Assembly (NCBI GenBank): GCA_017632945.1
Contig: JAGBQH010000007.1
Location: 1-64,000 of the forward strand
Reading direction: 5' to 3'
From: Aeriscardovia sp.
Lineage (GTDB): Bacteria > Actinomycetota > Actinomycetes > Actinomycetales > Bifidobacteriaceae
Length of the DNA stretch: 64,000 bases
The notes below the pieces were generated by a model, which did no database searches, was not told the DNA's origin, and saw only the letters and a list, made by a program, of their open reading frames with translations. A program made the position numbers and the translations under genes. Each line of letters opens with the position of its first letter. Position 1 is the stretch's first letter. Below are positions 6,601 to 20,908 of this stretch, piece after piece.

Positions 6601-8352
6601 CTACATCACTTTTGGAGCGCTGACCCCCAAAAGTCCTAAGCCGTTTTCTATTACCTGTTTTACGGCTTCCGTGAGCTTAAGTCTCGCATCTGCCCTCTCA
6701 GGGCTGGGGGCTTTGTCAATTTCCAGCTCTTTTCCGCCCTTTGCTTTTTCCTCTTCACTAAGGTGGGATGGGATTACTCTCTCTACTCCATACCATGCAT
6801 GGAAGCACCCCGCAAGGTCTTCCAGGTAATGAGCTATGCGGTGGGGCTCCCTTAAGTCTCCTGCAGCCTGCACTACGGAAGGGTAAAGAGCCAGCATGGA
6901 TACGAGCCTCTCATCGAGAGGGGTATCCAAAAGCGATAGATCGGCTTTTGAGCCGTCCATGCCCATGTCCTTCGCCATTCCTTCGACGCTGCAGCATCTG
7001 GCGTGGGCGTACTGAACGTAGTAAATGGGATTGTCGTTGCTGTGGGAAGAAAGAAGCGCCAAGTCTATATCTATGCTCTGATTATAGCTGCTTCTCTCTA
7101 GAGCATAGCGGGCCGCATCCACTCCCACGGCATCTACCAAGTCCTCCAAGGTAACTACCGTCCCGGCCCTTTTGCTCATCCTAACGGGCTTTCCGTCTGA
7201 AGAGACGGTGACCATTTGCCCCAAAAGGACCTGAAGGGCCTTCTGGGGCTCGTCCCCATAGGCCGCACACACCGACATAAGCCTGCCTATATAGCCCGAG
7301 TGGTCGGCTCCAAGCATATAGATCGCCACATCGGCGGGATCTTTTTCCCTGTGGCGCTTGTCAAAGTAATAGGCGACGTCGGGAGCAAAATAAGTCAGAT
7401 TCCCGTCAGACTTTATAATCACCCTGTCTTTGTCGTCGCCGTACTTGGTGGAAGCAAACCAGGTAGCGCCGTCCTTTTCGTAGATGTCGCCCTTCTGGCG
7501 CAAAACGTCTATCGCCCTTTGGGTAGAACCGCTGTCATGAAGGCTCTGCTCGTGGAACCAGACGTCAAAATCCGATCCGAAATCGTGAAGGGAGTCCTTG
7601 ATTTCGTCAAACATCATGGGGACGGCCCTTTTCCTAAATTCCTCCAGCTGGCCGCCTTCCCCTTCAACCTTGGGAAGGGAAAGAATGTCGATTCCATCCT
7701 TCTTAGCTTGTTCTATGACTTTGGAAGCGATTTCTCCAATATAAGCTCCCTTGTAGCCATCTTCGGGAGTGGGTTCCCCATTTGCCCAGGCCATAAGAGA
7801 CTTTGCAAACCTGTCTATCTGCTTTCCGTGATCATTGAAGTAGTACTCCCTTACTACCTTCGCCCCATTGGCGGTCAAAATTCTAGAGAGGGAGTCTCCT
7901 ATAGCAGCCCAGCGGGCTCCCCCTATATGTATAGGACCGGTCGGGTTTGCCGAAACATATTCAAGATTTATAGTGATGCCTTTGAGGTGATCGTTTCTAC
8001 CGAACTTCCCCTTCTCGTCAAGGATCCCTTCCACCACCTGGTTAGCGCTCTCAGGGCTAAGGGTGATATTAACAAATCCCTTGCCTGCGACCTGGGCATC
8101 CTCTATTCCTTTGATATTTTTTAGCCTCTCGGCTATGAGGGCTGCCACATCCAGTGCCGGCAGTTTAGCCTTTGACGCCAACTGCATTGCTATAGGAGTA
8201 GCCCAGGTGCCGAAAGCTGAATTTTTCGGTCTTTTTACCGCGATCTTATCTGCTGAAGGAACTTGCGCCGCTTCAAGCTCTCCTAGTTTCCCTTCAGAGG
8301 CAAGCTTTAGGCATATCTCGCGTATTTTTTCCCCTAGTAGCTCAGGACTCAT
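6601..8352 (-). CDS. argS: Arginyl-tRNA synthetase
   Basis: It charges tRNA-Arg with arginine (class I synthetase). The protein is about 583 aa. It has an N-terminal ArgS-specific domain, the HIGH-type motif HIGG in NPTGPIHIGGARWAAIGDS, a KMSK-type motif RMSKR, and the C-terminal DALR anticodon-binding domain. The ATG at 8352 is chosen because the ribosome site GGACGGGGAAG lies just ahead of it. An upstream in-frame TTG at 8373 would place that site inside the gene. Confidence 0.96.
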   Translation of the reverse strand: MSPELLGEKIREICLKLASEGKLGELEAAQVPSADKIAVKRPKNSAFGTWATPIAMQLASKAKLPALDVAALIAERLKNIKGIEDAQVAGKGFVNITLSPESANQVVEGILDEKGKFGRNDHLKGITINLEYVSANPTGPIHIGGARWAAIGDSLSRILTANGAKVVREYYFNDHGKQIDRFAKSLMAWANGEPTPEDGYKGAYIGEIASKVIEQAKKDGIDILSLPKVEGEGGQLEEFRKRAVPMMFDEIKDSLHDFGSDFDVWFHEQSLHDSGSTQRAIDVLRQKGDIYEKDGATWFASTKYGDDKDRVIIKSDGNLTYFAPDVAYYFDKRHREKDPADVAIYMLGADHSGYIGRLMSVCAAYGDEPQKALQVLLGQMVTVSSDGKPVRMSKRAGTVVTLEDLVDAVGVDAARYALERSSYNQSIDIDLALLSSHSNDNPIYYVQYAHARCCSVEGMAKDMGMDGSKADLSLLDTPLDERLVSMLALYPSVVQAAGDLREPHRIAHYLEDLAGCFHAWYGVERVIPSHLSEEEKAKGGKELEIDKAPSPERADARLKLTEAVKQVIENGLGLLGVSAPKVM

Positions 8353-8594
8353 ATTTCTTCCCCGTCCTAACAAACTTCTGCGGCCTTATCCGCAGCTCGT
8401 ACTGTTTACTAATTATAAATTTGCCGGAAAAACTGCTTTTCAATTTTGAAGATTGCATCTAAAAAGAAACATGCGGAAGATAGACTAATACTCTGCCCTA
8501 TAAGGGAGGCAATTTCTAATTTCATACTGTGTAAATTCAATAACAAGCTCTAAAATGAGATAACAGTATTCCAGTCAAATCTGAAAGGAGTGGA

Positions 8595-10192
8595 ATGGAA
8601 GGCCATCAAGAGAGAGAGAGAGAGTCAATTCCTCCATCTGGAAGATCGCAGATGATCTTCGGGGAACTGTAGACGGATGGGACTTTAAGCAATACGTATT
8701 GGGAGCCCTATTCTATCGCTTCCTGTCTGAGAGTCTTGAAGAAAGAATAAATTCAAATGAGCGTAATGCCGGTAATGAAGATTTTCATTACAGGGATCTA
8801 GATGACGCGTTAGTAAGTGGAGAAGTAAGGGAGGAGCTAATAGATGAAAACGGTTTTTGCATCCTCCCCAGCCAGCTTTTCTGCAATGTGGCAGAAAGCG
8901 CTAAAACAAACTGCCAAGACCTCAACCTCAAACTAAAACAGATTTTTAAGGCGATAACGGATTCCACCCTGGGGCGCCCCTCCGAGAAGGCCTTCAGAGG
9001 GCTTTTCGACGATTTCGATGTCTCCAGCAATAAACTGGGAAGCACTCTTGAAAAGAAATGTGAGACTCTAAGAAAACTCCTCTTGGGAATTGAAGGCTTT
9101 CAGCTTTCCGACGTCCCCGGATCTTCAAGGGATACTTTCGGAGACGCCTACGAGTTCCTCATCACTATGTACGCATCCGGAGCTGGAAGAAGCGGGGGCG
9201 AGTTCTTCACTCCTCCCGAGGTGGGAAAACTCCTGGCCAAAATATCTTTGCAAGATCCGGAGCGCAAAGACGGGTATAAAAAGGCTGTAGGCAAAGTCTA
9301 CGATCCTACCTGCGGAAGCGGGGGGCTGCTGCTGAAGTTTGCTAAGATACTCGGCAAAGGGAACGTGGACCACTTTTACGGGCAGGATGTAAACCTCACG
9401 GTTTACAACTTGTCCCGCATGAATATGATTCTGCACGGCATTCCCTTTGAAAAATTCGACATCGTCTGCGAAGACACCCTGTTGAAGCCCGCTTTTCTTC
9501 CTTCGGCTCCCGATTCAGTGGGCGACAGGGTCGAGTGCATAGTCTCAAATCCCCCCTATTCCATTAAGTGGAAAGGCGATGCCGATCCCACCCTGATAAA
9601 TGATCCCAGGTTCAGGAAGGCCGGAAAGCTTGCCCCCCAAAAAAAGGCGGACTGGGCATTTGCGGAGCACGCCCTTTACTGCCTGCAAGAAGACGGGTGC
9701 GCTGCTATAGTCTGCTTCCCCGGGATTTTCTACAGGTCCGGCGCAGAGGGGCAGATTAGGAAGTGGATGGCAAAAAGCAATTATGTAGATGCCGTCATAG
9801 CCCTTCCCGACAACCTCTTCTTTGGAACTGCCATTTCGACCTGCATTCTGGTGCTCAGGAAAAATAAGAAAGATTCCAAAGTGCTCTTTGTGGACGCTTC
9901 GGATGAATTTAAGCACGAGGGAAACAAAAACAAACTCACCGACGAAAATATAGGCCATATCCTCGCCTTGTTGCAGAAAAGGGAAACAAAATCCGAGAAA
10001 TCGTATTTGGCTTCCATGAAAGAAATAGAAGCTCAAAACTGGAGCTTTGCCGTAAACCTGTACGTGCAAAAGGGAAACAGCAAAGAAAAGGTAGACATAA
10101 GGGCCCTCAATCAGGAAATATCACAGACAGTAAAACGAGAGGAAAAAACCCGGGGAGAACTGGATGAACTTATAAAGGGGTTGGGATTCTAA
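8595..10192 (+). CDS. hsdM: Type I restriction-modification DNA methyltransferase HsdM, out of phase
   Basis: HsdM adds adenine methyl groups and is needed for both modification and restriction. Motif I appears as DPTCGSGG and motif IV as NPPY. The open frame starts with a TTG at 8699. However, the same frame upstream, back to 8627, encodes the typical HsdM N-terminus (NSSIWKIADDLRGTVDGWDF) with no start codon. The ATG at 8595, 4 bp after AAAGGAG, is out of frame and stops at 8670 because of the (AG)8 tract. With seven AG units it would join the frame and give about 531 aa. The hsdM stop overlaps the hsdS start (TAATG). The present state therefore looks OFF, unless reads or slippage say otherwise. 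Confidence 0.9.
8609..8624 (+). repeat. (AG)8 dinucleotide repeat in the hsdM start region
   Basis: Eight perfect AG units lie 14 bp downstream of the A of the best hsdM ATG (8595). Unit number decides the frame: 4, 7 or 10 units connect the ATG to the methyltransferase frame, and 8 do not. Slipped-strand change at such tracts is a known cause of phase variation. Confidence 0.95.
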
Positions 10193-11304
10193 TGAGCAAT
10201 TTAAAAGATCTATTGGAATCCGTCCCAGACAAAGACACGACATGGGAAACCATAGGATCGCTTTCCACTATAGTGGCTACTGACCATATTGACAAAAGTA
10301 ATTATCGGCCCCAAGGTAAATATCCCGTAATTTCTCAGGCTAGCGAGTTTATTAGCGGTTTTACAGATCAAGGCAACGCTATGCCTAAGGATGAATATAT
10401 ATGTTTTGGCGATCATACGCTTTGCGTAAAATTTATAGACTTTAGCTTTGTACAAGGGGCTGACGGTCTAAAAATTCTCAAGGTTAGAGATAAGCAAACT
10501 ATATATCCTAAGTATTTTTATTACTGTGTACAAATTGCCGCTTCTAATTTGCCATCTGGATATGAACGCCATTGGAAATTATTAAGGCAATTCTCACTCC
10601 CCATTCCGCCTCTCGAAGTGCAGAAAAGGATCGCAGACACTTTGGACAAGTTCACGGAGTTGGAGACCGAGTTGGAGACCGAGTTGGAGGAAAGAAATAG
10701 GCAATACGGCTATTACAGGGGGAAGCTTATACATAACGGAGCCCCAGAAGTCCCCCTCAAAGATTTTGTCGCGATCACAAAAGGAAAGCAGCTCAACAAG
10801 GAGCTTTGTTCAAAAGTCCAAACCGAAAAAACTCCTTTCCCTGTTATTAACGGAGGAATGATGCCCTCTGGGTTTTGGAATGAATTCAACTTCGACAAGG
10901 GTAAAATCACAATTGCCCAGGGAGGGAAATCTGGTGGATTTGTAAGTTGGCAAACTTTGCCATTTTGGGCTGGAGCACATTGCTTTGTAGTGAGCAACTT
11001 TGATAACAAAAAATTAAATTACAGGTACCTTTACTACTTCCTTAAAGAAAAGCAAGCAGATCTTCAGTCTCAAAAGCAAGGCGCCACAATTCCAAGTCTC
11101 TCAGCCGACGCTCTCCTTTTGCTGAACATCCCCCTTCCCCCTCTTGAAACTCAAAAAGAGATCGCAGACGTCTTAGATAAGTTCACCTCCCTTACATCCT
11201 CTGTGAAGGTAGGGATTCCCGCTGAAATTTCTCTGAGGCGAAAACAGATGGAGTGGTACAGAGACGCGATGTTCAAGGCACTTTACAGCGAGGAAGAAAA
11301 ATAA
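10192..11304 (+). CDS. hsdS: Type I restriction-modification specificity subunit HsdS
   Basis: HsdS carries the two target recognition domains that define the bipartite DNA site. In the 370-aa protein, TRD1 covers about residues 1-140 and TRD2 about 190-315. Each is followed by a conserved helical part: PIPPLEVQKRIADTLDKFTELE... and PLPPLETQKEIADVLDKFTSL. The first helical spacer contains a 12-bp tandem repeat giving TELETELETELE. The start overlaps the hsdM stop by one base, so translation is probably coupled to hsdM. TRD1 is AT-richer than its surroundings, as is common for exchanged specificity domains. Confidence 0.95.
   Translation: MSNLKDLLESVPDKDTTWETIGSLSTIVATDHIDKSNYRPQGKYPVISQASEFISGFTDQGNAMPKDEYICFGDHTLCVKFIDFSFVQGADGLKILKVRDKQTIYPKYFYYCVQIAASNLPSGYERHWKLLRQFSLPIPPLEVQKRIADTLDKFTELETELETELEERNRQYGYYRGKLIHNGAPEVPLKDFVAITKGKQLNKELCSKVQTEKTPFPVINGGMMPSGFWNEFNFDKGKITIAQGGKSGGFVSWQTLPFWAGAHCFVVSNFDNKKLNYRYLYYFLKEKQADLQSQKQGATIPSLSADALLLLNIPLPPLETQKEIADVLDKFTSLTSSVKVGIPAEISLRRKQMEWYRDAMFKALYSEEEK
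10657..10689 (+). repeat. 12-bp tandem repeat in the HsdS central spacer
   Basis: GAGTTGGAGACC occurs twice and is followed by a 9-bp partial third copy. The unit adds four residues (ELET) in frame. In EcoR124-type HsdS, gain or loss of a four-residue repeat at this place changes the spacing of the recognised half-sites. Confidence 0.9.
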
Positions 11305-14199
11305 ATGGGAACTTTCAACATTGTAAGCCAAGGGGAGTTTTCCACCGTCCTTGCAAATAAAGACGAGCTTAAAAAATCCCCCAAGAGCCGCGAGTACCAA
11401 TCAGAAGGGGATCTTGAAAAAGAATTTATAAATTCCCTTCGCGATCTTGGCTACGAGTACAAAGACTTTCATCTCGAGAAGGGCCTGGAAGCCAACTTAA
11501 GAGAGCAGATCGGAAAGTTGAACAGATACAGTTTTTCGGACGCCGACTGGGACAGATTCTGCAATGAAAAGCTGTCGGACTTAGACATGGAAAAGGCCAC
11601 TTGGATTATCCAGGAAAACAGCACCCTGGATTTTACGGACGAAAAGGGAGAACTTCACAATATAAAGCTCGTTGACAAAGACAACCTCTCCCGCAATTCC
11701 TGCCAGGTAATCGAGCAGTTTATAGACGAGGCGGATAACGGAAGGCAGAAAAACAGGTATGACGTAACAATCCTTATAAACGGCCTCCCCCTCGTACACT
11801 GCGAGCTGAAAAGAAGGGACCGACCCCTCCAAGACGCCTTCAACCAGATAGACCGTTACAAGGCGACTTCCTTTCCCGACGGGATGGGCCTTTTCAACTT
11901 CATACAAATCTTTGTGATAAGCAACGGAGGAGACACCAGGTACTACTCCAACACCGTAGAGAAAAACCGCAGAGCCGACGAGGACAACTTCAAGTTCGCC
12001 TGCAGATGGACGGATCAGAAAAACAGTCCGATAAGGGATTTGAACGATTTTTCACAGGCCTTCTTCAACAAGCGCACCCTTCTTAGCATTCTGACCCGCT
12101 ACTGCGTGTTTACGGCAAAAAATGAAGAAGGGGAAAGGCGCCTTCTTGTAATGCGCCCGTACCAGATAACTGCGACGGAAAAAGTGCTGGAAAAAATAAA
12201 CCAGGCGCATCTTAACGGCAAATTCGGGACTGAACGGCAGGGCGGATACGTCTGGCACACCACAGGCTCAGGCAAAACCCTGACTTCTTTCAAGACTGCA
12301 ACGTTGGCTTCCAAAATGAAGGGGGTAGACAAGGTGCTTGTCGTAGTCGACAGGCAAGACCTCGATTACCAAACCATAAAGGAATACAACAAGTACAGCG
12401 AGGGATGTGTGGACTTTACCAATAACTCAAGGAATCTGGAAGAGCAGCTTGAAAATGACAACATAAAACTTATTGTCACCACCATTCAAAAGCTAAACGC
12501 CTTGTGCCGGAGGAAGAAAATCTCCGAAAAAGTCCGGAACCTCAACTGCGTATTCATATTCGACGAGTGCCACAGATCTCAGGCCGGCATAATGCATTCC
12601 AACATCGTGAATAACTTTAAAAAGTACCTGCTTTTCGGATTTAGCGGAACCCCTATTTTCGAGTCCGACAAAAAAACCTCCAGCGAAGGCAGGGAAATCG
12701 AGGCTACCACCCCCAATATCTTCGGAGATCCCCTGCACGAGTATACGATAGTGCACGCAATCAACGACGAAACGGTGCTCCCTTTTCAGTATTCGCTTGT
12801 AGGATGCGCTGACAAAACTTTCAGGTCTCCAGAAAATTTGCAGGTGCGGGCAAATGCGGACTATATTGCCCGAAACTTCAACTTTTATACGCATAAAGGA
12901 CGCTACAACTCCATCCTGGCCGCAGAAAGCATCGAAGCCGCAAAAGAATACTGGAGGGCCTTCAAGGGCTTAGAGAAAGAAGGCCTTGGAGACTTTAAGA
13001 TGGCCATAGTCTATTCTTCTCAGGGAGGAGAGGAAGATGAAATGGATCCGGGCGCAGAAAAAGCGGAAAACAGAATCTTCTTAAAGGAGGCGATCTCAGA
13101 CTACAACCGAGAGTTTGGTTGCAATTTCTTCATGGAAAACGCTCAAAGTTTCCAGGAATACTACAGAGATGTTTCAGAAAAGATGAAAGAGCGAGAGCTC
13201 GATCTTTTGATAGTGGTGAATATGTTTCTGACGGGATTCGATTCCAAGCGTCTAAGCACTTTGTGGGTGGATAAGAACCTTGAAAAACACAACCTCCTAC
13301 AGGCGTTTTCGAGGACAAACCGGATCTTTGATTCCACAAAGGACAAGGGCATAATCGTCTCTTTCAGGGATCTGGAGGAAAAACTGGATGAATCCCTAGC
13401 CATATACGGATCTGACGCCAAGGCGGACAAGGGCCTGATATTCGGCCGCTCCTACGAAGATCTTATGGAAGGCTGGGAGGATAAAGACGGGAAACACAAA
13501 GGCTACAGGCAGGTTGTACAAGATTTTCAGGGCGAATTTCCCGTTGGCGTGGAACCGGTGGGGGAAAGAGGGAAGAGAAAATTTGCGGAAGATTGGAACG
13601 AAATACTGAAAAGATCCAACCTCCTCTCCACTTTCCCTGAATTTGAAATAGAAGATCCCATTACCCCGAGAGACAGGCAAACCTACAACGGCACCTATCT
13701 CAATCTTCGCGACCGCTTCAGGGCCTGCCCGGAAGAGAATCCCGATCTCACGGAAGTGGTTTGGGAAGTCAAACTTTTGAGCCAAAAGGAAATTGACGTC
13801 GACTATATCCTGAACCTGTGCGCCAAGGGTGACACCATGGATGATGTGGACAGGGCGATAAATTCGAGCCTGGTTTTGCGCCCTCAAAAGGAGGTCATCT
13901 TAAAATACCTCAGCGATCCCGGGACAGCGGATGGAAAAGAAGATTTTCCGGATTTTCGGCGAAGAGAACGGGAAAAGTCCTTGGATCACATCATAAAAGA
14001 CGCCCATCTTGAACCTGAAAAAACCCGGAAGTTTTGCAAAGAATGGATCCGCACTCAAAATCGTGACCCCTTCGTAGGCCGCGCCTTTGCAGGCATACTT
14101 CCCCCCTTGTCCTTATTCGATAAAGAAAGGGCAAAGAAAAAAGAGGAAGTTAGGAATGCGCTTTGCAAGTGGGCAGAAAAGTACGCAATCTTAGGATGA
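11305..14199 (+). CDS. hsdR: Type I restriction enzyme HsdR subunit
   Basis: HsdR is the ATP-driven translocase and endonuclease of the complex. The 964-aa protein has an N-terminal PD-(D/E)xK-like nuclease with DVTILINGLPLVHCELKRRD at about residues 152-171. The Walker A motif TTGSGKT is near 319 and the DECH box (DECHRSQ) near 420. Helicase domain 2 includes MFLTGFDSKRLSTLWVDK and QAFSRTNR. The frame is intact and the ATG directly follows the hsdS stop. Restriction needs HsdM and HsdS, so an OFF hsdM should also silence cleavage. Confidence 0.96.
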   Translation: MGTFNIVSQGEFSTVLANKDELKKSPKSREYQSEGDLEKEFINSLRDLGYEYKDFHLEKGLEANLREQIGKLNRYSFSDADWDRFCNEKLSDLDMEKATWIIQENSTLDFTDEKGELHNIKLVDKDNLSRNSCQVIEQFIDEADNGRQKNRYDVTILINGLPLVHCELKRRDRPLQDAFNQIDRYKATSFPDGMGLFNFIQIFVISNGGDTRYYSNTVEKNRRADEDNFKFACRWTDQKNSPIRDLNDFSQAFFNKRTLLSILTRYCVFTAKNEEGERRLLVMRPYQITATEKVLEKINQAHLNGKFGTERQGGYVWHTTGSGKTLTSFKTATLASKMKGVDKVLVVVDRQDLDYQTIKEYNKYSEGCVDFTNNSRNLEEQLENDNIKLIVTTIQKLNALCRRKKISEKVRNLNCVFIFDECHRSQAGIMHSNIVNNFKKYLLFGFSGTPIFESDKKTSSEGREIEATTPNIFGDPLHEYTIVHAINDETVLPFQYSLVGCADKTFRSPENLQVRANADYIARNFNFYTHKGRYNSILAAESIEAAKEYWRAFKGLEKEGLGDFKMAIVYSSQGGEEDEMDPGAEKAENRIFLKEAISDYNREFGCNFFMENAQSFQEYYRDVSEKMKERELDLLIVVNMFLTGFDSKRLSTLWVDKNLEKHNLLQAFSRTNRIFDSTKDKGIIVSFRDLEEKLDESLAIYGSDAKADKGLIFGRSYEDLMEGWEDKDGKHKGYRQVVQDFQGEFPVGVEPVGERGKRKFAEDWNEILKRSNLLSTFPEFEIEDPITPRDRQTYNGTYLNLRDRFRACPEENPDLTEVVWEVKLLSQKEIDVDYILNLCAKGDTMDDVDRAINSSLVLRPQKEVILKYLSDPGTADGKEDFPDFRRREREKSLDHIIKDAHLEPEKTRKFCKEWIRTQNRDPFVGRAFAGILPPLSLFDKERAKKKEEVRNALCKWAEKYAILG

Positions 14200-14765: not shown

Positions 14766-17618
14766 GTGTTAAGGAAACGTCCTACTAAAGCCGGTAAGGC
14801 AGACAGAAAATTAAGCATAGCAATAGTTGCGGGAGTGACGGGGCTGGGGACCATGCTCGCCATGGCGCCCGCTTCTTTTGCAAGTACTCTGCCCGCGCGT
14901 ACTGGAAACCAAGATACTTCAAGCCTGAGCGCATCCGCCCTGAAAATTTCTGAGCTGCAAAAAGCGAAGGGCGTGCTGGACTCGATCTCCCAGGCAGCTC
15001 TCCCCTCCTCTTCCCTGGATACTGCTTCCTACCAGACCCAGGAAAAGCAGCAGGAGCTGGCTAAAAGCCTGCTTAGCCTGACAAAAAATTTGGAAGGCGT
15101 GCTGCATGGAACGCCCAGCGCATCAGAGCTGCAATCCGTCCAAAGCGGGTTAAATCAAGTGGAGGACGTGCTTAACACCCCCAACCTCCCCACTTCCCAG
15201 CTCGAAGGGGCTGCAAACACCCAAGGCAAACTTCAAAGCCTTGTAGAGCAGCTTCAGAGCATAATAAACGATGCGTCCTCCCAATACGAGGCGCAGCTTA
15301 AGAATGCGGTGGATGATTTTAACAATTCCGAACTTCCTGCCATAGAGGCGGCAGTAAGCAAGGCCATCCAAGCCTCGCAAAGCGTATACGGAATGGCAAA
15401 CAGCGCAAACAACCCCACACTTTCTTCCGCCCTCAGCACTTTTTCATCTGATGCCAGCAGCGCCGCCAGCGAGGCGGGAAGCTCTTCGGATTCTTCCAGC
15501 CTGATCGGCGAAGCCGAGCTGATAGAACAAAACGCCAACGCCCAGCTCGCCAATATCCAAAACGAATCCAAGGGCTTCTACGATTCTTCATCTTCTTCGC
15601 CCCAAGGAAGCCTGGTTATGGAGGCCAAAAACTTTGATACTTGGGCAAAGACATGGATTGAAGATGCCAATGGGGGGCAAAACTCCGCCACCCATTACGG
15701 CTACACCAGTTTCTTAAATGCCATCAATACGGCGCTTAGCGACGTATCCGCCTGGCAGGCCGACCACACTCTTACAGTCAGCGACCAGGCCGACGCCGCC
15801 ACGGTGGAAAATAACTTGAAAATAATGAAGGCAGCAGTAGAAACGCTTCAAAACCTCATGGAAAACAGCGATGCAGCTTCCCTCTCTGCAGATGATGCGT
15901 ATTCTACGGCTTGGCAGGAGGCTTTGAGCGGGTCCTCTTCCACATTTGCAACGTTGCAAAGCTTTATTACGATGCCCTTCACCCCGGCGGCTCAGGGAGG
16001 CGCTTCTGGAACCGTTCCGGAAAGCGTAAGCACCTATGGGGGGCAGACTTTTAACGTATGGCCTAAAGACAACCCCTTCAGCGGTTCCAATGCGTCTCAA
16101 CTTTGGACAGACCTTTCCACTCTTCAAAGCGATGCTTTAGGAAACCTTCCAAAGATGGATTTGGGAGAATCGGGAAGCATAAACTCGGTGCGGGAAACTT
16201 GGGAAAGGGACTGGTCCAATTACGAGTACCTCCAGGCCCTGAACCGTTACGCCGAGCCGATTCTTTACGATTCACGCCAAGTCCTTTCCCTCGCCCAGCA
16301 AGCTTCGGCAAAGATAACTTCCGCCCTTCAGCTGGCAAAGCAGGCTACCGATGCAAACTCAGAGCTGGCAGAAGAAAACTCCTCTCAAGGCGCCTCTTTG
16401 GCTAAAGAGGCCGGGGAGGATCTTGAAGATGCACTGGCGGATGTAAACAACGCGGAGAGCTACGGAGCTTCAGTGACGCAGGATATGGGGGGAGCGTACT
16501 CCCAATACGTCAGCGCCACAAGTTCCACCCCCAGCATCACCGTTCTAAAGCAACTGGCCACCTACGGCAAATCCGTTATCGTAAAGGTAGACCTTCCCGT
16601 TCAAACTACCGAGGATGCCCTCTATACCCAGTCCCAGATAAGCCAGACCGAGTCCAATCTCACCGGCGCCATAAACCAGGCTTATGAAGATCTAACGGGA
16701 TCTGCCGCCGGCACCGGCAAAGGGGGTCTTTTAGGAGACGGGGCGGCTTGGCAGAGGGCCCTGGTGACCCAGGGCGTTTTCAATGAGGCACAAAAGTCCT
16801 ATGACAACATCGGGAAGGTGCAGCAGGACCTTGAGGGCGTCAAATCCGCTTCCAATCCGGCAGATGCCACAGAAAGCCTAAACAATCTGCAGGCCGATCT
16901 TCCCGTCCTCATAAGCAGCGCCCAGAACGCGCTTGAAAGCATGAGCAGCGGATCGCAAACTTTGCAGGGATTAAACCAAAGTTCCCCCTACAGCCAAAGC
17001 GACATCTCAAGCGCCAATGCGGATCTGACCCAGGCACTCCCCCTAGCCTCCGCTTCCAACGCCTCCAACCCCATTCAAAAGGCCATAGGCGACGCAAACT
17101 CCTATAACTCGGGGAACCCCATCGTATCGGGAATAAAGAACCTTCAACCTGCAATTTCTTCCCTAATCGGCCAGGACGGCCAGCAGGGGGAAGCGCAAAA
17201 GGTTTTGTCCCTTCCCTTCCAAGCGACCCCAGCTTCAACTTCTTCCAGCTCTGCCCCTTCGCCCCAGTCCTCCCCAAGCGTTAAAAGCGCCGTTCAAACC
17301 GAGCCTGCAGAAAAGCAGGCTCCCGCTAAGATCGCAAAGCCGCAAACTCCCCACCTCGCATCCGGTCAGGCGGTTCCCTCCTCATCGGTTTCCCCAAGCT
17401 CTGCCCCTTCGCCCCAGTCCTCCCCAAGCGTTAAAAGCGCCGTTCAAACCGAGCCTGCAGAAAAGCAGGCTCCCGCTAAGATCGCAAAGCCGCAAACTCC
17501 CCACCTCGCATCTACCGGTTCGGATGTTGACGCTGCGGCCTTGGGGGCTGCAATTCTCTTAACCGTGGGAGTAGTGGCGGAACTTTTGAAAAACAAAAAG
17601 AGAAGGAAAAACAGATAA
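14766..17618 (+). CDS. Large cell-wall-anchored surface protein with LASTG sorting signal (paralog 1)
   Basis: A 950-aa secreted protein of unknown function. A basic N-terminus and hydrophobic stretch (IAIVAGVTGLGTMLAMAP) form a signal peptide, probably cut after SFA (residue 39). The long middle is rich in Ala, Ser, Gln and Asn, probably helical, and lacks cysteines. The C-terminus has a Ser/Pro/Ala stalk, LASTG at 914-918, a hydrophobic segment and a KNKKRRKNR tail. LAxTG is the recognition motif of class E sortases in actinobacteria, so wall anchoring is inferred. GTG start with ribosome site AAAAGGAG. The stalk has an exact 116-bp repeat. It is homologous to the next gene along most of its length. 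Adhesion is plausible but not shown. Confidence 0.85.
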   Translation: MLRKRPTKAGKADRKLSIAIVAGVTGLGTMLAMAPASFASTLPARTGNQDTSSLSASALKISELQKAKGVLDSISQAALPSSSLDTASYQTQEKQQELAKSLLSLTKNLEGVLHGTPSASELQSVQSGLNQVEDVLNTPNLPTSQLEGAANTQGKLQSLVEQLQSIINDASSQYEAQLKNAVDDFNNSELPAIEAAVSKAIQASQSVYGMANSANNPTLSSALSTFSSDASSAASEAGSSSDSSSLIGEAELIEQNANAQLANIQNESKGFYDSSSSSPQGSLVMEAKNFDTWAKTWIEDANGGQNSATHYGYTSFLNAINTALSDVSAWQADHTLTVSDQADAATVENNLKIMKAAVETLQNLMENSDAASLSADDAYSTAWQEALSGSSSTFATLQSFITMPFTPAAQGGASGTVPESVSTYGGQTFNVWPKDNPFSGSNASQLWTDLSTLQSDALGNLPKMDLGESGSINSVRETWERDWSNYEYLQALNRYAEPILYDSRQVLSLAQQASAKITSALQLAKQATDANSELAEENSSQGASLAKEAGEDLEDALADVNNAESYGASVTQDMGGAYSQYVSATSSTPSITVLKQLATYGKSVIVKVDLPVQTTEDALYTQSQISQTESNLTGAINQAYEDLTGSAAGTGKGGLLGDGAAWQRALVTQGVFNEAQKSYDNIGKVQQDLEGVKSASNPADATESLNNLQADLPVLISSAQNALESMSSGSQTLQGLNQSSPYSQSDISSANADLTQALPLASASNASNPIQKAIGDANSYNSGNPIVSGIKNLQPAISSLIGQDGQQGEAQKVLSLPFQATPASTSSSSAPSPQSSPSVKSAVQTEPAEKQAPAKIAKPQTPHLASGQAVPSSSVSPSSAPSPQSSPSVKSAVQTEPAEKQAPAKIAKPQTPHLASTGSDVDAAALGAAILLTVGVVAELLKNKKRRKNR
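17247..17512 (+). repeat. Exact 116-bp direct repeat in the stalk of surface protein 1
   Basis: 17247-17362 and 17397-17512 are identical, with a 150-bp period (50 codons). Each copy encodes the segment from SSAPSPQSSPSVKSAVQ through KIAKPQTPHLAS. The second copy leads into the LASTG sorting motif, while the first reads LASGQ. This points to a recent in-frame duplication that lengthened the wall-spanning part. Confidence 0.95.
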
Positions 17619-18256: not shown

Positions 18257-20908
18257 ATGACACGAGGACGTCATGCCAAACCCAGTAAGATAAACCAAAA
18301 AATAAGCGTAGCGGTAGTCGCAGGAGTGACGGGACTGGGAACCATGCTCTCCATGGTGCCCGCCTCCTTTGCAGATACGCTTCCCACCAACAATGAGAGC
18401 CAAAATACGTCAAGCAAGGCTGTTTCTTCAGCTTTAAAGCTTTCAAAATTGGATCAGGCCCAGTCTTCTCTAAATTCCATAAGCCTGGCAGTCACTTCCA
18501 TTGGATCTTTAGGCTTGCAGACCGCGGGATACCAGACTCAGGCCAAGCAGCAGGCCGTGGCTGAAAATCTTTTGACCCTGACCCAGAACCTGGAGGGGAT
18601 ACTTCACGACACCCCCTATATGTCCCAGCTTTCTACCGTTCAAAGCGCGCTTGAAAGCGTTGAAAACACCCTCAAGACCCCTAACCTTGCAAACTCCGAC
18701 CTGCAGGGGGACACAAAGACCCAGGGCCAGCTTCAAAACCTGGTAAAGCAGCTCCAGACCATCATAAACGACGCTTCCACTCAATACGGCACCGAACTCA
18801 AGAACGCCGTAGACGATTACAACAAGACCAACCTCCCCGCCACGGAAGCGGGGGTAAACGACGCCATCAAGGCCGCCCAGAACGTCTACAACACGGCAAA
18901 TACGGCAAATAACCCCGATCTTGCCAGTGCCAACAACACTTTCTCCACCAATGCCGGCTCCGCCGCAAATACGGCCGGAAGCACTTCCGATTCTTCTACC
19001 ATCCTTGGCAAGGCCGAGGCTTTGCAGCAGAACGCGGAAAACCAGCTAAACAACATCAATACCGAGATTAAGAGCTACTACAACGACAGCGCCTCTCCCG
19101 CCACCGGCACCCTGCTTACAGATGCCAAGAATTTGGACGCCTGGCTTCAAACCTGGTGGAGCCAGCGCGCACCGGACGGCGTTAACGGCGACAACAACGC
19201 CGGCGGCACCCAATATGGGTACACTCAAACATTTCTGCCCCTGGTAAAGCAGTTGATCACCGAAGTAAGCGGCGCGACAATTGCCCCCGGTAAAAGCGCA
19301 GATGCCGCAACCGTGCTGAAAAATCTTAAGATAATGGAAGCCTGCGTAGAAGAGCTGCAGAGCATAACGGAAAATTCCGATCTGGCTTCCCTGCCTCCCG
19401 ACGAGGCGTTTTCCCAGGCTACCCAGCGCGTCTTTGGCAACAACCAGCTAGGGGCTGGGAGCGATCGGAGCCTGTTGGTGAACTTCATACTGAATTTTAC
19501 CGGCCTTGGAGGGGGAGCCGGGACCGTTCCTTCGTGCGTGCCAAATTACGGCGGCCAGAGTGTAGACTCCATGCCTACTACCAATCCCTTCACCGGAACT
19601 GAGGGCGCGGAGATATGGAGTAAGATCACCGGCACCAAACTTCAGCAGTACAATGGCTCGATGCCGGAAATTGGGGGCCACAAATATGAAGCTATAGAGG
19701 AGCAGTGGGATCAGGACTATGCCAACTACAAGTACCTGCAGTCCGTGCAGCCCTACGCCCAGACGATTGCCAGTGAGGCCCAGACGGCGCTGAGCAAGGC
19801 TCAGGACGCCGCAAACAAGATCGCTGAAGCCAAGCAGCTGGCGGATCAAAATACCGGCGCCTCCGCTTCCGATGCCGCTGCCGCGGCCCAGGCCAAGGCT
19901 GATATTCAGTCCGCCCTGCAAGACGTCGCTGCCGCAAACAGCGCGGGAGAGGCAATAAAAACGGCTATGAGCAGCGCCGCCAGCCAGTATTCCGACGCCA
20001 AGGGTTCGACTCCTACCGTCACAATCAACGGAAAGACCGTAACCCTGCCCGAGGCTACCAATGAGGACCCCCTCTACTCTTCCTCGGACATGAATGCGAT
20101 AAACAGCGATTTTAGCAACTACGTAAACCAGGCCAACAATCTGCTTTCCGGATCCGACTCCGGAACAGGGACCGGAGGTCTGCTGGGTGATGCTACGGCA
20201 TGGCAAAAAGCCATCGTCACCCAGGGCGTCTTTAACGATGCTCAAAAGGCTTACAATGCCATCCAAGGCGTCCAGCAGGATTTGAAGGACGTAGAGTCGG
20301 CCGCCAATCCGGGAGCCGCCATCAACAGCCTAAACAAGCTGCAAAGCGACCTCACCCCCCTGATTAACAACACCCAAAGCGCCGTAACCGGCATGCAGAA
20401 CGGAAACCAGACAATTCAGGGCCTGGGGCTTGCGGCCCCCTACAGCCAAAGCGACATTTCCAACGCCCAGACTCCCCTGACTTCCGCTTTGCCCCTCGCC
20501 TCCGCTTCCAATGCCTCTAATCCCATTCAGAAGGCCATCGCCAATGGGAACAGCTACAACTTCGCCCACCCGATTGTGGTAGGCATGACCAACCTTCAGC
20601 CCGATATCCAGAGCCTTATAGGCCAGGGAAGCGAGCCCGGAAGCGCCCAGAAGATTTTGGCCCTGCCCTTCCAGGCTATGCCCGCAGCTTCCATGCCTTC
20701 AGGCACTGCAAACTCTGGGCAGGCATCTTCCATGAGCCAGATGCCTTCCCAAGGCCAGGTCCAGGTCCAGCAGGCAAAGCCTTCAAGCTCTAACCTCGCT
20801 TCTACCGGTGCCAGCATTGAAGCCGCTTCGATCGGCGCAGGCGTCCTTCTTGCTGCAGGCATAGCTGCCGAGCTTTTGAAAAAGAAGAAAACTGAGAGGA
20901 ATAAATAG
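18257..20908 (+). CDS. Large cell-wall-anchored surface protein with LASTG sorting signal (paralog 2)
   Basis: An 883-aa secreted protein of unknown function, paralogous to the preceding gene. The signal peptide (VAVVAGVTGLGTMLSMVPASFA, cut near residue 39) is nearly the same. A helical Ala/Asn/Gln-rich body includes the shared block PYSQSDIS...LASASNASNPIQKAI. A short Met/Ser/Gln-rich stalk precedes LASTG at 847-851, a hydrophobic segment and a KKKKTERNK tail. The part after LASTG is 32 residues in both paralogs. It lacks the 50-residue stalk repeat. ATG start with AAGAGGAAGG ribosome site. No sortase gene is in the window. A strong terminator follows. Confidence 0.87.
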   Translation: MTRGRHAKPSKINQKISVAVVAGVTGLGTMLSMVPASFADTLPTNNESQNTSSKAVSSALKLSKLDQAQSSLNSISLAVTSIGSLGLQTAGYQTQAKQQAVAENLLTLTQNLEGILHDTPYMSQLSTVQSALESVENTLKTPNLANSDLQGDTKTQGQLQNLVKQLQTIINDASTQYGTELKNAVDDYNKTNLPATEAGVNDAIKAAQNVYNTANTANNPDLASANNTFSTNAGSAANTAGSTSDSSTILGKAEALQQNAENQLNNINTEIKSYYNDSASPATGTLLTDAKNLDAWLQTWWSQRAPDGVNGDNNAGGTQYGYTQTFLPLVKQLITEVSGATIAPGKSADAATVLKNLKIMEACVEELQSITENSDLASLPPDEAFSQATQRVFGNNQLGAGSDRSLLVNFILNFTGLGGGAGTVPSCVPNYGGQSVDSMPTTNPFTGTEGAEIWSKITGTKLQQYNGSMPEIGGHKYEAIEEQWDQDYANYKYLQSVQPYAQTIASEAQTALSKAQDAANKIAEAKQLADQNTGASASDAAAAAQAKADIQSALQDVAAANSAGEAIKTAMSSAASQYSDAKGSTPTVTINGKTVTLPEATNEDPLYSSSDMNAINSDFSNYVNQANNLLSGSDSGTGTGGLLGDATAWQKAIVTQGVFNDAQKAYNAIQGVQQDLKDVESAANPGAAINSLNKLQSDLTPLINNTQSAVTGMQNGNQTIQGLGLAAPYSQSDISNAQTPLTSALPLASASNASNPIQKAIANGNSYNFAHPIVVGMTNLQPDIQSLIGQGSEPGSAQKILALPFQAMPAASMPSGTANSGQASSMSQMPSQGQVQVQQAKPSSSNLASTGASIEAASIGAGVLLAAGIAAELLKKKKTERNK

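What the first reader, a model, noticed from the sequence alone, without database searches (positions are those of the whole stretch)
8595..8702. Phase-variable hsdM: (AG)8 tract disconnects the only good start codon
Seen: the ATG at 8595 sits 4 bp after AAAGGAG but reads into a stop at 8670. The hsdM frame upstream of its first usable start (TTG 8699) encodes the family N-terminus IWKIADDLRGTVDGWDFKQYV with no start codon. Removing one AG unit (8 to 7) joins them exactly and gives about 531 aa. Known: simple repeats at R-M genes drive on/off switching by slippage. Inferred: this copy is OFF; since hsdS overlaps hsdM, its translation would fall too, and restriction stops with modification, so the switch is safe. 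One of three repeat classes is ON.
Basis: partly seen in the sequence, partly recalled or inferred. Interest (0 to 1): 0.9.

Follow-up and report, generated by a model that had tools for sequence, protein, structure and literature searches.

The report
Repeat-switched start of restriction-modification gene hsdM
A run of eight AG repeats just after the start codon puts a DNA-modification gene out of frame in this small-genome gut actinobacterium, and because close relatives carry the same run at 8 or 10 units and similar runs sit in their other restriction-modification genes, it is almost certainly a slippage switch of a known type, here used across a whole genus that has lost all known mismatch repair.

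Summary
ATG 8595 (SD AAAGGAG) runs through (AG)8 at 8609-8624 to a stop at 8670. The hsdM frame has no start before TTG 8699; 7 (or 10) units join them into 531 (533) aa. Six of seven genomes of the genus (Aeriscardovia-like MAGs, ~0.8 Mb) carry the tract at this place: five have 8 units (OFF), one has 10 (ON). HsdM stays under purifying selection (dN/dS 0.05-0.19), so it is not a dead gene. In the whole 788-kb genome the only two dinucleotide runs of at least 6 units lie in R-M genes (hsdM and a Type ISP enzyme, both OFF). All 11 AG runs of at least 7 units in the genus lie in R-M genes. Poly-G tracts split further methyltransferases (one orthologue G8 ON; three G9-G10 OFF). The genus has neither MutS nor NucS. 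The hsdS linker has a 12-bp repeat at 3-7 copies, as in EcoR124. Best explanation: slipped-strand ON/OFF phase variation of a type IC-like R-M operon, one locus of a genus-wide switched R-M arsenal. Known kind (H. influenzae hsdM; Mycoplasma AG-tract mod). Not shown: within-strain variation or methylation change. Unexplained: five of six species at exactly 8.

The parts
8584..8590 (+). Shine-Dalgarno AAAGGAG; GAAAGG conserved in six species
8595..8597 (+). ATG start of hsdM (ATGGAA invariant in six species)
8609..8624 (+). (AG)8 slippage tract; ON at 7, 10, 13 units, OFF here
8670..8672 (+). TAG that ends the 25-codon OFF-frame reading
8636..10192 (+). hsdM frame from the conserved IWKIADDLRG to its stop (HsdM_N + N6_Mtase), intact, no start codon of its own before 8699
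10192..11304 (+). hsdS, start overlaps hsdM stop by 1 base (TAATG)
10657..10692 (+). 12-bp repeat x3 in hsdS (ELET ELET ELEE) in the linker between the two specificity domains; 3, 3, 4, 4, 7 copies in five species
11305..14199 (+). hsdR (HSDR_N, SWI2/SNF2, EcoR124_C), starts directly after the hsdS stop
6601..8373 (-). argS, divergent neighbour, same in the genus: locus is in its ancestral place

Best explanation
The (AG)n tract in codons 5-10 of hsdM is a contingency tract. Replication slippage adds or removes 2-bp units; 7, 10 or 13 units (n = 1 mod 3) join the ribosome-binding site and ATG to the HsdM frame (ON), while other lengths end translation after about 15-25 codons (OFF). HsdM, HsdS and HsdR are encoded in one close-packed operon, so an OFF cell has no M2S methyltransferase and therefore neither modification nor restriction; an ON cell has a complete type IC-like system. 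The assembled sequence is OFF. The switch is one of several: the same genome has a Type ISP enzyme broken at (CT)9, an Eco57I-type methyltransferase broken at G9 and an HSDR_N protein out of frame at C9, and sister species have further AG- or G-tract methyltransferases, ON or OFF. Absence of MutS and NucS leaves slippage errors uncorrected by any known mismatch repair. Shown: anatomy, frames, conservation, interspecies length differences, selection on the protein, missing repair genes, tract enrichment in R-M genes. Inferred: slippage within strains, effect on HsdS/HsdR, loss of methylation, benefit (bet-hedging between phage defence and DNA uptake, or regulation by methylation).
For: Frames and start sites in six species: 8, 8, 8, 8, 8 OFF; 10 ON; tract uninterrupted although synonymous sites are near saturation in most pairs (pS 0.28-0.70). 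hsdM dN/dS 0.05-0.19, hsdR 0.09-0.21, no internal stops. The 7-unit N-terminus aligns with family KEQERxELHxxIW, and its Met-to-W distance lies in the family range of mostly 14-18; none of the other HsdM loci scanned outside the genus has a dinucleotide or longer-unit repeat there. Genome census: only two dinucleotide runs of >=6 units in 787,826 bp, both in R-M genes that make up about 2% of the genome. All 11 AG runs of >=7 units in 7 genomes lie in R-M genes. An orthologous Eco57I-type gene is a single 659-aa frame at G8 but split at G9, G10 and G9. No MutS and no NucS, while controls ring. Replication-slippage switching is measured in Bifidobacterium breve (PMC9187656) and AG-tract mod switching in Mycoplasma mycoides (PMC3498834).
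Against: No reads or second strain of the same species could be examined, so within-strain variation is not shown. Five of six species have exactly 8 units, more uniform than free slippage would predict. Actinobacterial DnaE proofreading can suppress indels (PMC8228993), so lack of mismatch repair need not mean a high rate. No promoter match was found.
Confidence: 0.87

Rival explanations
1. (AG)8 is the fixed, working length and hsdM is decoded by recoding: one-unit transcriptional slippage or a +2 (net -1) ribosomal shift inside the repeat gives some full-length HsdM all the time.
For: Five of six species have exactly 8 units although the gene is under purifying selection. A +2 shift re-pairs GAG with GAG in the repeat. 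A faint band in the M. mycoides AG12 (OFF) clone leaves leaky expression possible.
Against: G004 has 10 units, plainly in frame. Other tracts in the genus vary freely (G8, G9, G10 in one orthologue), and AG is replaced by poly-G in another methyltransferase family. Productive +2 shifts are rarely described (own knowledge).
Confidence: 0.07
2. Sequencing or assembly slip: the true count is 7.
For: Single-genome view; repeat tracts are error-prone.
Against: The same 8 units appear in five separate assemblies of five species, at least two of which match named MAG records (L038, L050); one has 10. A 16-base dinucleotide run lies well inside read length.
Confidence: 0.03
3. hsdM is a recent pseudogene; the tract is a chance frameshift.
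For: No start codon in frame; OFF in five species.
Against: No stops in 518 codons in any of five full-length copies, dN/dS 0.05-0.19, intact hsdS and hsdR frames, in-frame 10-unit copy in G004.
Confidence: 0.02
4. The shorter protein from TTG 8699 (497 aa) is the real HsdM and the tract is upstream leader.
For: An open frame exists from 8699.
Against: No SD before TTG 8699; it removes the conserved IWKIADDLRGTVDGWDFKQYV, kept in all relatives; HsdM_N matches from residue 1 of the longer frame; ATG and SD are conserved upstream.
Confidence: 0.01

Closest known systems
Haemophilus influenzae phase-variable hsdM (pentanucleotide SSR, HI1287 locus)
   Same: SSR in the reading frame of a type I hsdM switches it ON/OFF (PMC2651432, PMC7394358)
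   Different: Unit is 5 bp and the host is a gammaproteobacterium; here a 2-bp unit in a small actinobacterium
Mycoplasma mycoides MmyCI mod with (AG)12/(AG)10
   Same: AG dinucleotide tract, OFF at 12 and ON at 10 with matching loss and gain of protein and activity; conserved across several Mycoplasma mod genes; reduced genome (PMC3498834)
   Different: Type III mod, tract from nucleotide 320; here type I hsdM, right after the start codon
Bifidobacterium breve G-tract pilus switch; Gardnerella homopolymer tracts
   Same: Same family; replication slippage in coding tracts, mixed populations, ON length enriched in vivo; Gardnerella list includes methyltransferases (PMC9187656, PMC11287997)
   Different: Pili and surface proteins, mononucleotide tracts; no dinucleotide R-M tract in the passages read
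EcoR124I / EcoR124II (type IC)
   Same: HsdR with EcoR124_C; 12-bp repeat in the HsdS linker whose copy number sets the gap of the target (PMC3874165)
   Different: EcoR124 has 2 or 3 TAEL repeats; here ELET/ELES repeats, 3 to 7 copies, and an added slippage tract in hsdM

Membership tests
SSR phase-variable type I hsdM | Perfect SSR with unit not a multiple of 3 in the 5' coding region, far beyond chance | tested here: met
   (AG)8; 0 of 100 shuffles, expected 0.0027 per genome
SSR phase-variable type I hsdM | Repeat number decides whether start and body share a frame | tested here: met
   7 and 10 join, 8 does not
SSR phase-variable type I hsdM | Tract length varies between relatives, with ON and OFF alleles | tested here: met
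   8 x5 OFF, 10 x1 ON; between species only
SSR phase-variable type I hsdM | Gene otherwise intact and selected | tested here: met
   dN/dS 0.05-0.19, no stops
SSR phase-variable type I hsdM | Length change within one strain, with change of expression or methylation | not testable with these tools
   no reads, one genome per species
Type I R-M, IC-like (EcoR124) | HsdM with HsdM_N and N6_Mtase; HsdS with two specificity domains; HsdR with HSDR_N, helicase, EcoR124_C | tested here: met
Type I R-M, IC-like (EcoR124) | Short repeat in the HsdS central linker with varying copy number | tested here: met
   3, 3, 4, 4, 7 copies of 12 bp
Type I R-M, IC-like (EcoR124) | Methylation of a split target and ATP-dependent cleavage | not testable with these tools
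   needs methylome or enzyme assay
Phasevarion | Switching changes expression of other genes | not testable with these tools
   needs ON/OFF clones and RNA data; not claimed

The most novel reading that the evidence does not exclude
A whole genus of ~0.8-Mb actinobacteria that has lost both MutSL and NucS keeps most of its restriction-modification enzymes (type I, type III, Type ISP, Eco57I-type) behind independent slippage tracts, so that each population is a mosaic of random R-M combinations; the near-constant 8 units at hsdM would then mark an OFF-biased resting state from which ON cells are selected during phage attack.
Probability: 0.45. Interest if true: 0.65.

Novelty: new member of a known kind. 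Interest (0 to 1): 0.5.

Why it matters
It extends repeat-driven switching of restriction-modification, best studied in pathogens, to a reduced-genome lineage of gut actinobacteria. Several unrelated R-M enzymes have acquired tracts there while no known mismatch repair was found. That makes it a natural system for asking whether losing repair of slippage errors is exploited as a defence strategy. It also warns that R-M genes with 'frameshifts' in such genomes are probably switches, not pseudogenes.

Tried and rejected
The genome-contig scan gave host names but no second strain of the same species. Metagenome contigs had no scans available, so within-species tract lengths could not be read. Promoter scan found nothing. 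Considered and rejected: pseudogene, TTG 8699 start, GTG 8590 start at 9 units, assembly slip; recoding kept as a weak rival. The -2 ribosomal shift favoured by the repeat gives the wrong frame. ON/OFF counts (1 of 6 ON) do not differ from the 1/3 expected by chance and were not used as evidence. No structure prediction was run because the family assignment is unambiguous.

Full report
What is in the sequence. One search shows AAAGGAG (8584-8590), ATG 8595, (AG)8 at 8609-8624 and, in the ATG frame, a stop at 8670. The frame that encodes HsdM has a TGA at 8582 and then no ATG, GTG or TTG until 8699, although it encodes the conserved N-terminus from 8636. Removing one AG joins ATG and body into 531 aa. 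Pfam gives HsdM_N and N6_Mtase for HsdM, Methylase_S (two stretches) for HsdS, and HSDR_N, SWI2/SNF2 and EcoR124_C for HsdR. hsdM and hsdS overlap as TAATG, and hsdR follows hsdS without a gap.

Relatives. The genome (G000, 787,826 bp, 12 contigs) belongs to a genus of small genomes; two sister genomes match records named Aeriscardovia sp. from water-buffalo abomasum. Six of the seven genomes held for the genus carry this hsdM next to argS; G003 lacks it. All six have the tract at the same place after ATGGAA: 8 units in G000, G005, G001, G006 and G002 (OFF), 10 in G004 (ON). More distant HsdM proteins, about 54% identical or less, have no dinucleotide or longer-unit repeat there; their N-terminus reads like KEQERAELHRTIW, and the 7-unit window product MEGHQERERVNSSIW lines up with it. 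The tract thus appears to have grown from an ancestral run of Glu-Arg codons (inference).

Selection. Among five full-length copies hsdM dN/dS is 0.05-0.19 with pS 0.28-0.70, and no stop occurs inside. A gene that stayed OFF would not look like this, so it must be read at least part of the time. The tract itself has no substitution in six species.

The wider pattern. All of G000 was read in stretches and searched for perfect short repeats. Only two dinucleotide runs of 6 or more units exist: hsdM (AG)8 and (CT)9 at C9:174455-174472. The second splits a Type ISP restriction-modification enzyme right after its Walker A motif (Mrr_cat_2, ResIII, ISP_coupler and Type_ISP_C); it would be in frame at 7 or 10 units, so at 9 it is OFF. 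The orthologue in G006 has no repeat and is one 1448-aa frame. Two of the six homopolymers of 9 in G000 also break R-M-type genes: G9 at C9:129233 splits an Eco57I-type methyltransferase (412 + 279 aa), and C9 at C9:89235 lies just after the ATG of an HSDR_N protein that is out of frame. R-M genes cover about 2% of the genome; four of eight such tracts in them has a nominal probability near 1e-5 (the classes were chosen after the fact).

Across the genus, every AG run of 7 or more units (11 runs in 7 genomes) lies in an R-M gene: hsdM in six, the Type ISP gene in G000, a type III mod in G005 (10, in frame), Eco57I-type methyltransferases in G001 (8, OFF), G003 (7, OFF) and G002 (9, in frame at a contig end). 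Poly-G tracts occur in more: one orthologous Eco57I-type gene is a single 659-aa frame at G8 in G001 but split at G9 in G000, G10 in G005 and G9 in G006; the family with AG runs in G001 and G003 has G10 in G006; type III mod genes of G005 and G004 have G9 in frame.

Repair. No MutS (PF00488) and no NucS (PF01939) was found in any of the seven genomes, while the same searches ring in the control genomes. NucS does not correct indels anyway, and DnaE proofreading may (PMC8228993), so a high slippage rate is plausible, not shown.

Mechanism. Slippage sets n; n = 1 mod 3 gives HsdM, otherwise translation stops early. Without HsdM no M2S forms, so HsdR cannot act; coupling through the TAATG overlap should also lower HsdS (established behaviour of type I enzymes plus inference). 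Switching back ON exposes unmodified DNA, which type I systems usually tolerate through restriction alleviation (own knowledge; not tested). In addition, the hsdS linker has 12-bp repeats at 3, 3, 4, 4 and 7 copies in five species. In EcoR124 this repeat sets the target gap (PMC3874165), so the operon probably varies in specificity too.

What does not fit yet. Five of six species have exactly 8 units. Either OFF is the common resting state with ON cells selected at times, as majority and minority tract lengths coexist in B. breve, or 8 allows some leaky full-length product. A one-unit transcript slip or a +2 ribosomal shift would be needed; neither was testable.

Known or new. SSR control of hsdM is known: about 2% of hsdM genes carry SSRs (PMC7394358), and switching is demonstrated in H. 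influenzae. AG-tract switching of a methyltransferase is known in Mycoplasma (PMC3498834). Slippage switching is known in the same family for pili and surface genes. New here, as far as the library shows, are the dinucleotide R-M tracts in Bifidobacteriaceae, their conservation across six species, their spread over several unrelated R-M enzymes in a reduced genome, and the absence of known mismatch repair. Family placement as Bifidobacteriaceae rests on the Aeriscardovia record titles.

Noticed in passing
L163:14455-14472 (G000:C9:174455-174472): (CT)9 splits a Type ISP R-M enzyme after its Walker A motif; OFF, would be ON at 7 or 10 units; orthologue in G006 has no tract.
   Followed up: yes
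L161:9233-9241 (G000:C9:129233-129241): G9 splits an Eco57I-type methyltransferase; orthologues: G8 intact in G001, G10 and G9 split in G005 and G006.
   Followed up: yes
L159:9235-9243 (G000:C9:89235-89243): C9 just after the ATG of an HSDR_N-domain protein, out of frame; would be in frame at 8. Same design as hsdM.
   Followed up: partly
L179:6208-6216 and L179:10343-10351 (G000:C5): C9 and G9 just upstream of two large (1046 and 1319 aa) secreted or surface-like proteins; possible promoter-spacing switches.
   Followed up: no
window 10657-10692: 12-bp repeat in the hsdS linker, 3 copies here, up to 7 in G001 (L004); probably changes target spacing as in EcoR124.
   Followed up: partly
L152:1382-1401 (G005:C6): (AG)10 in frame in a type III mod gene followed by res.
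   Followed up: yes
L153:5205-5220 (G001), L186:13526-13539 (G003), L221:3133-3142 (G006): The same Eco57I-type methyltransferase family carries an AG run in two species but a G10 run in the third, all OFF: the tract type differs while the switch is kept.
   Followed up: partly
L032, upstream of hsdM: G005 lacks about 130 bp between argS and hsdM that the other species have; if its hsdM is expressed, the promoter must lie in the conserved part next to argS.
   Followed up: no
window 14766-17618 and 18257-20908: Two paralogous ~900-aa cell-wall-anchored-looking proteins directly after the hsd operon.
   Followed up: no
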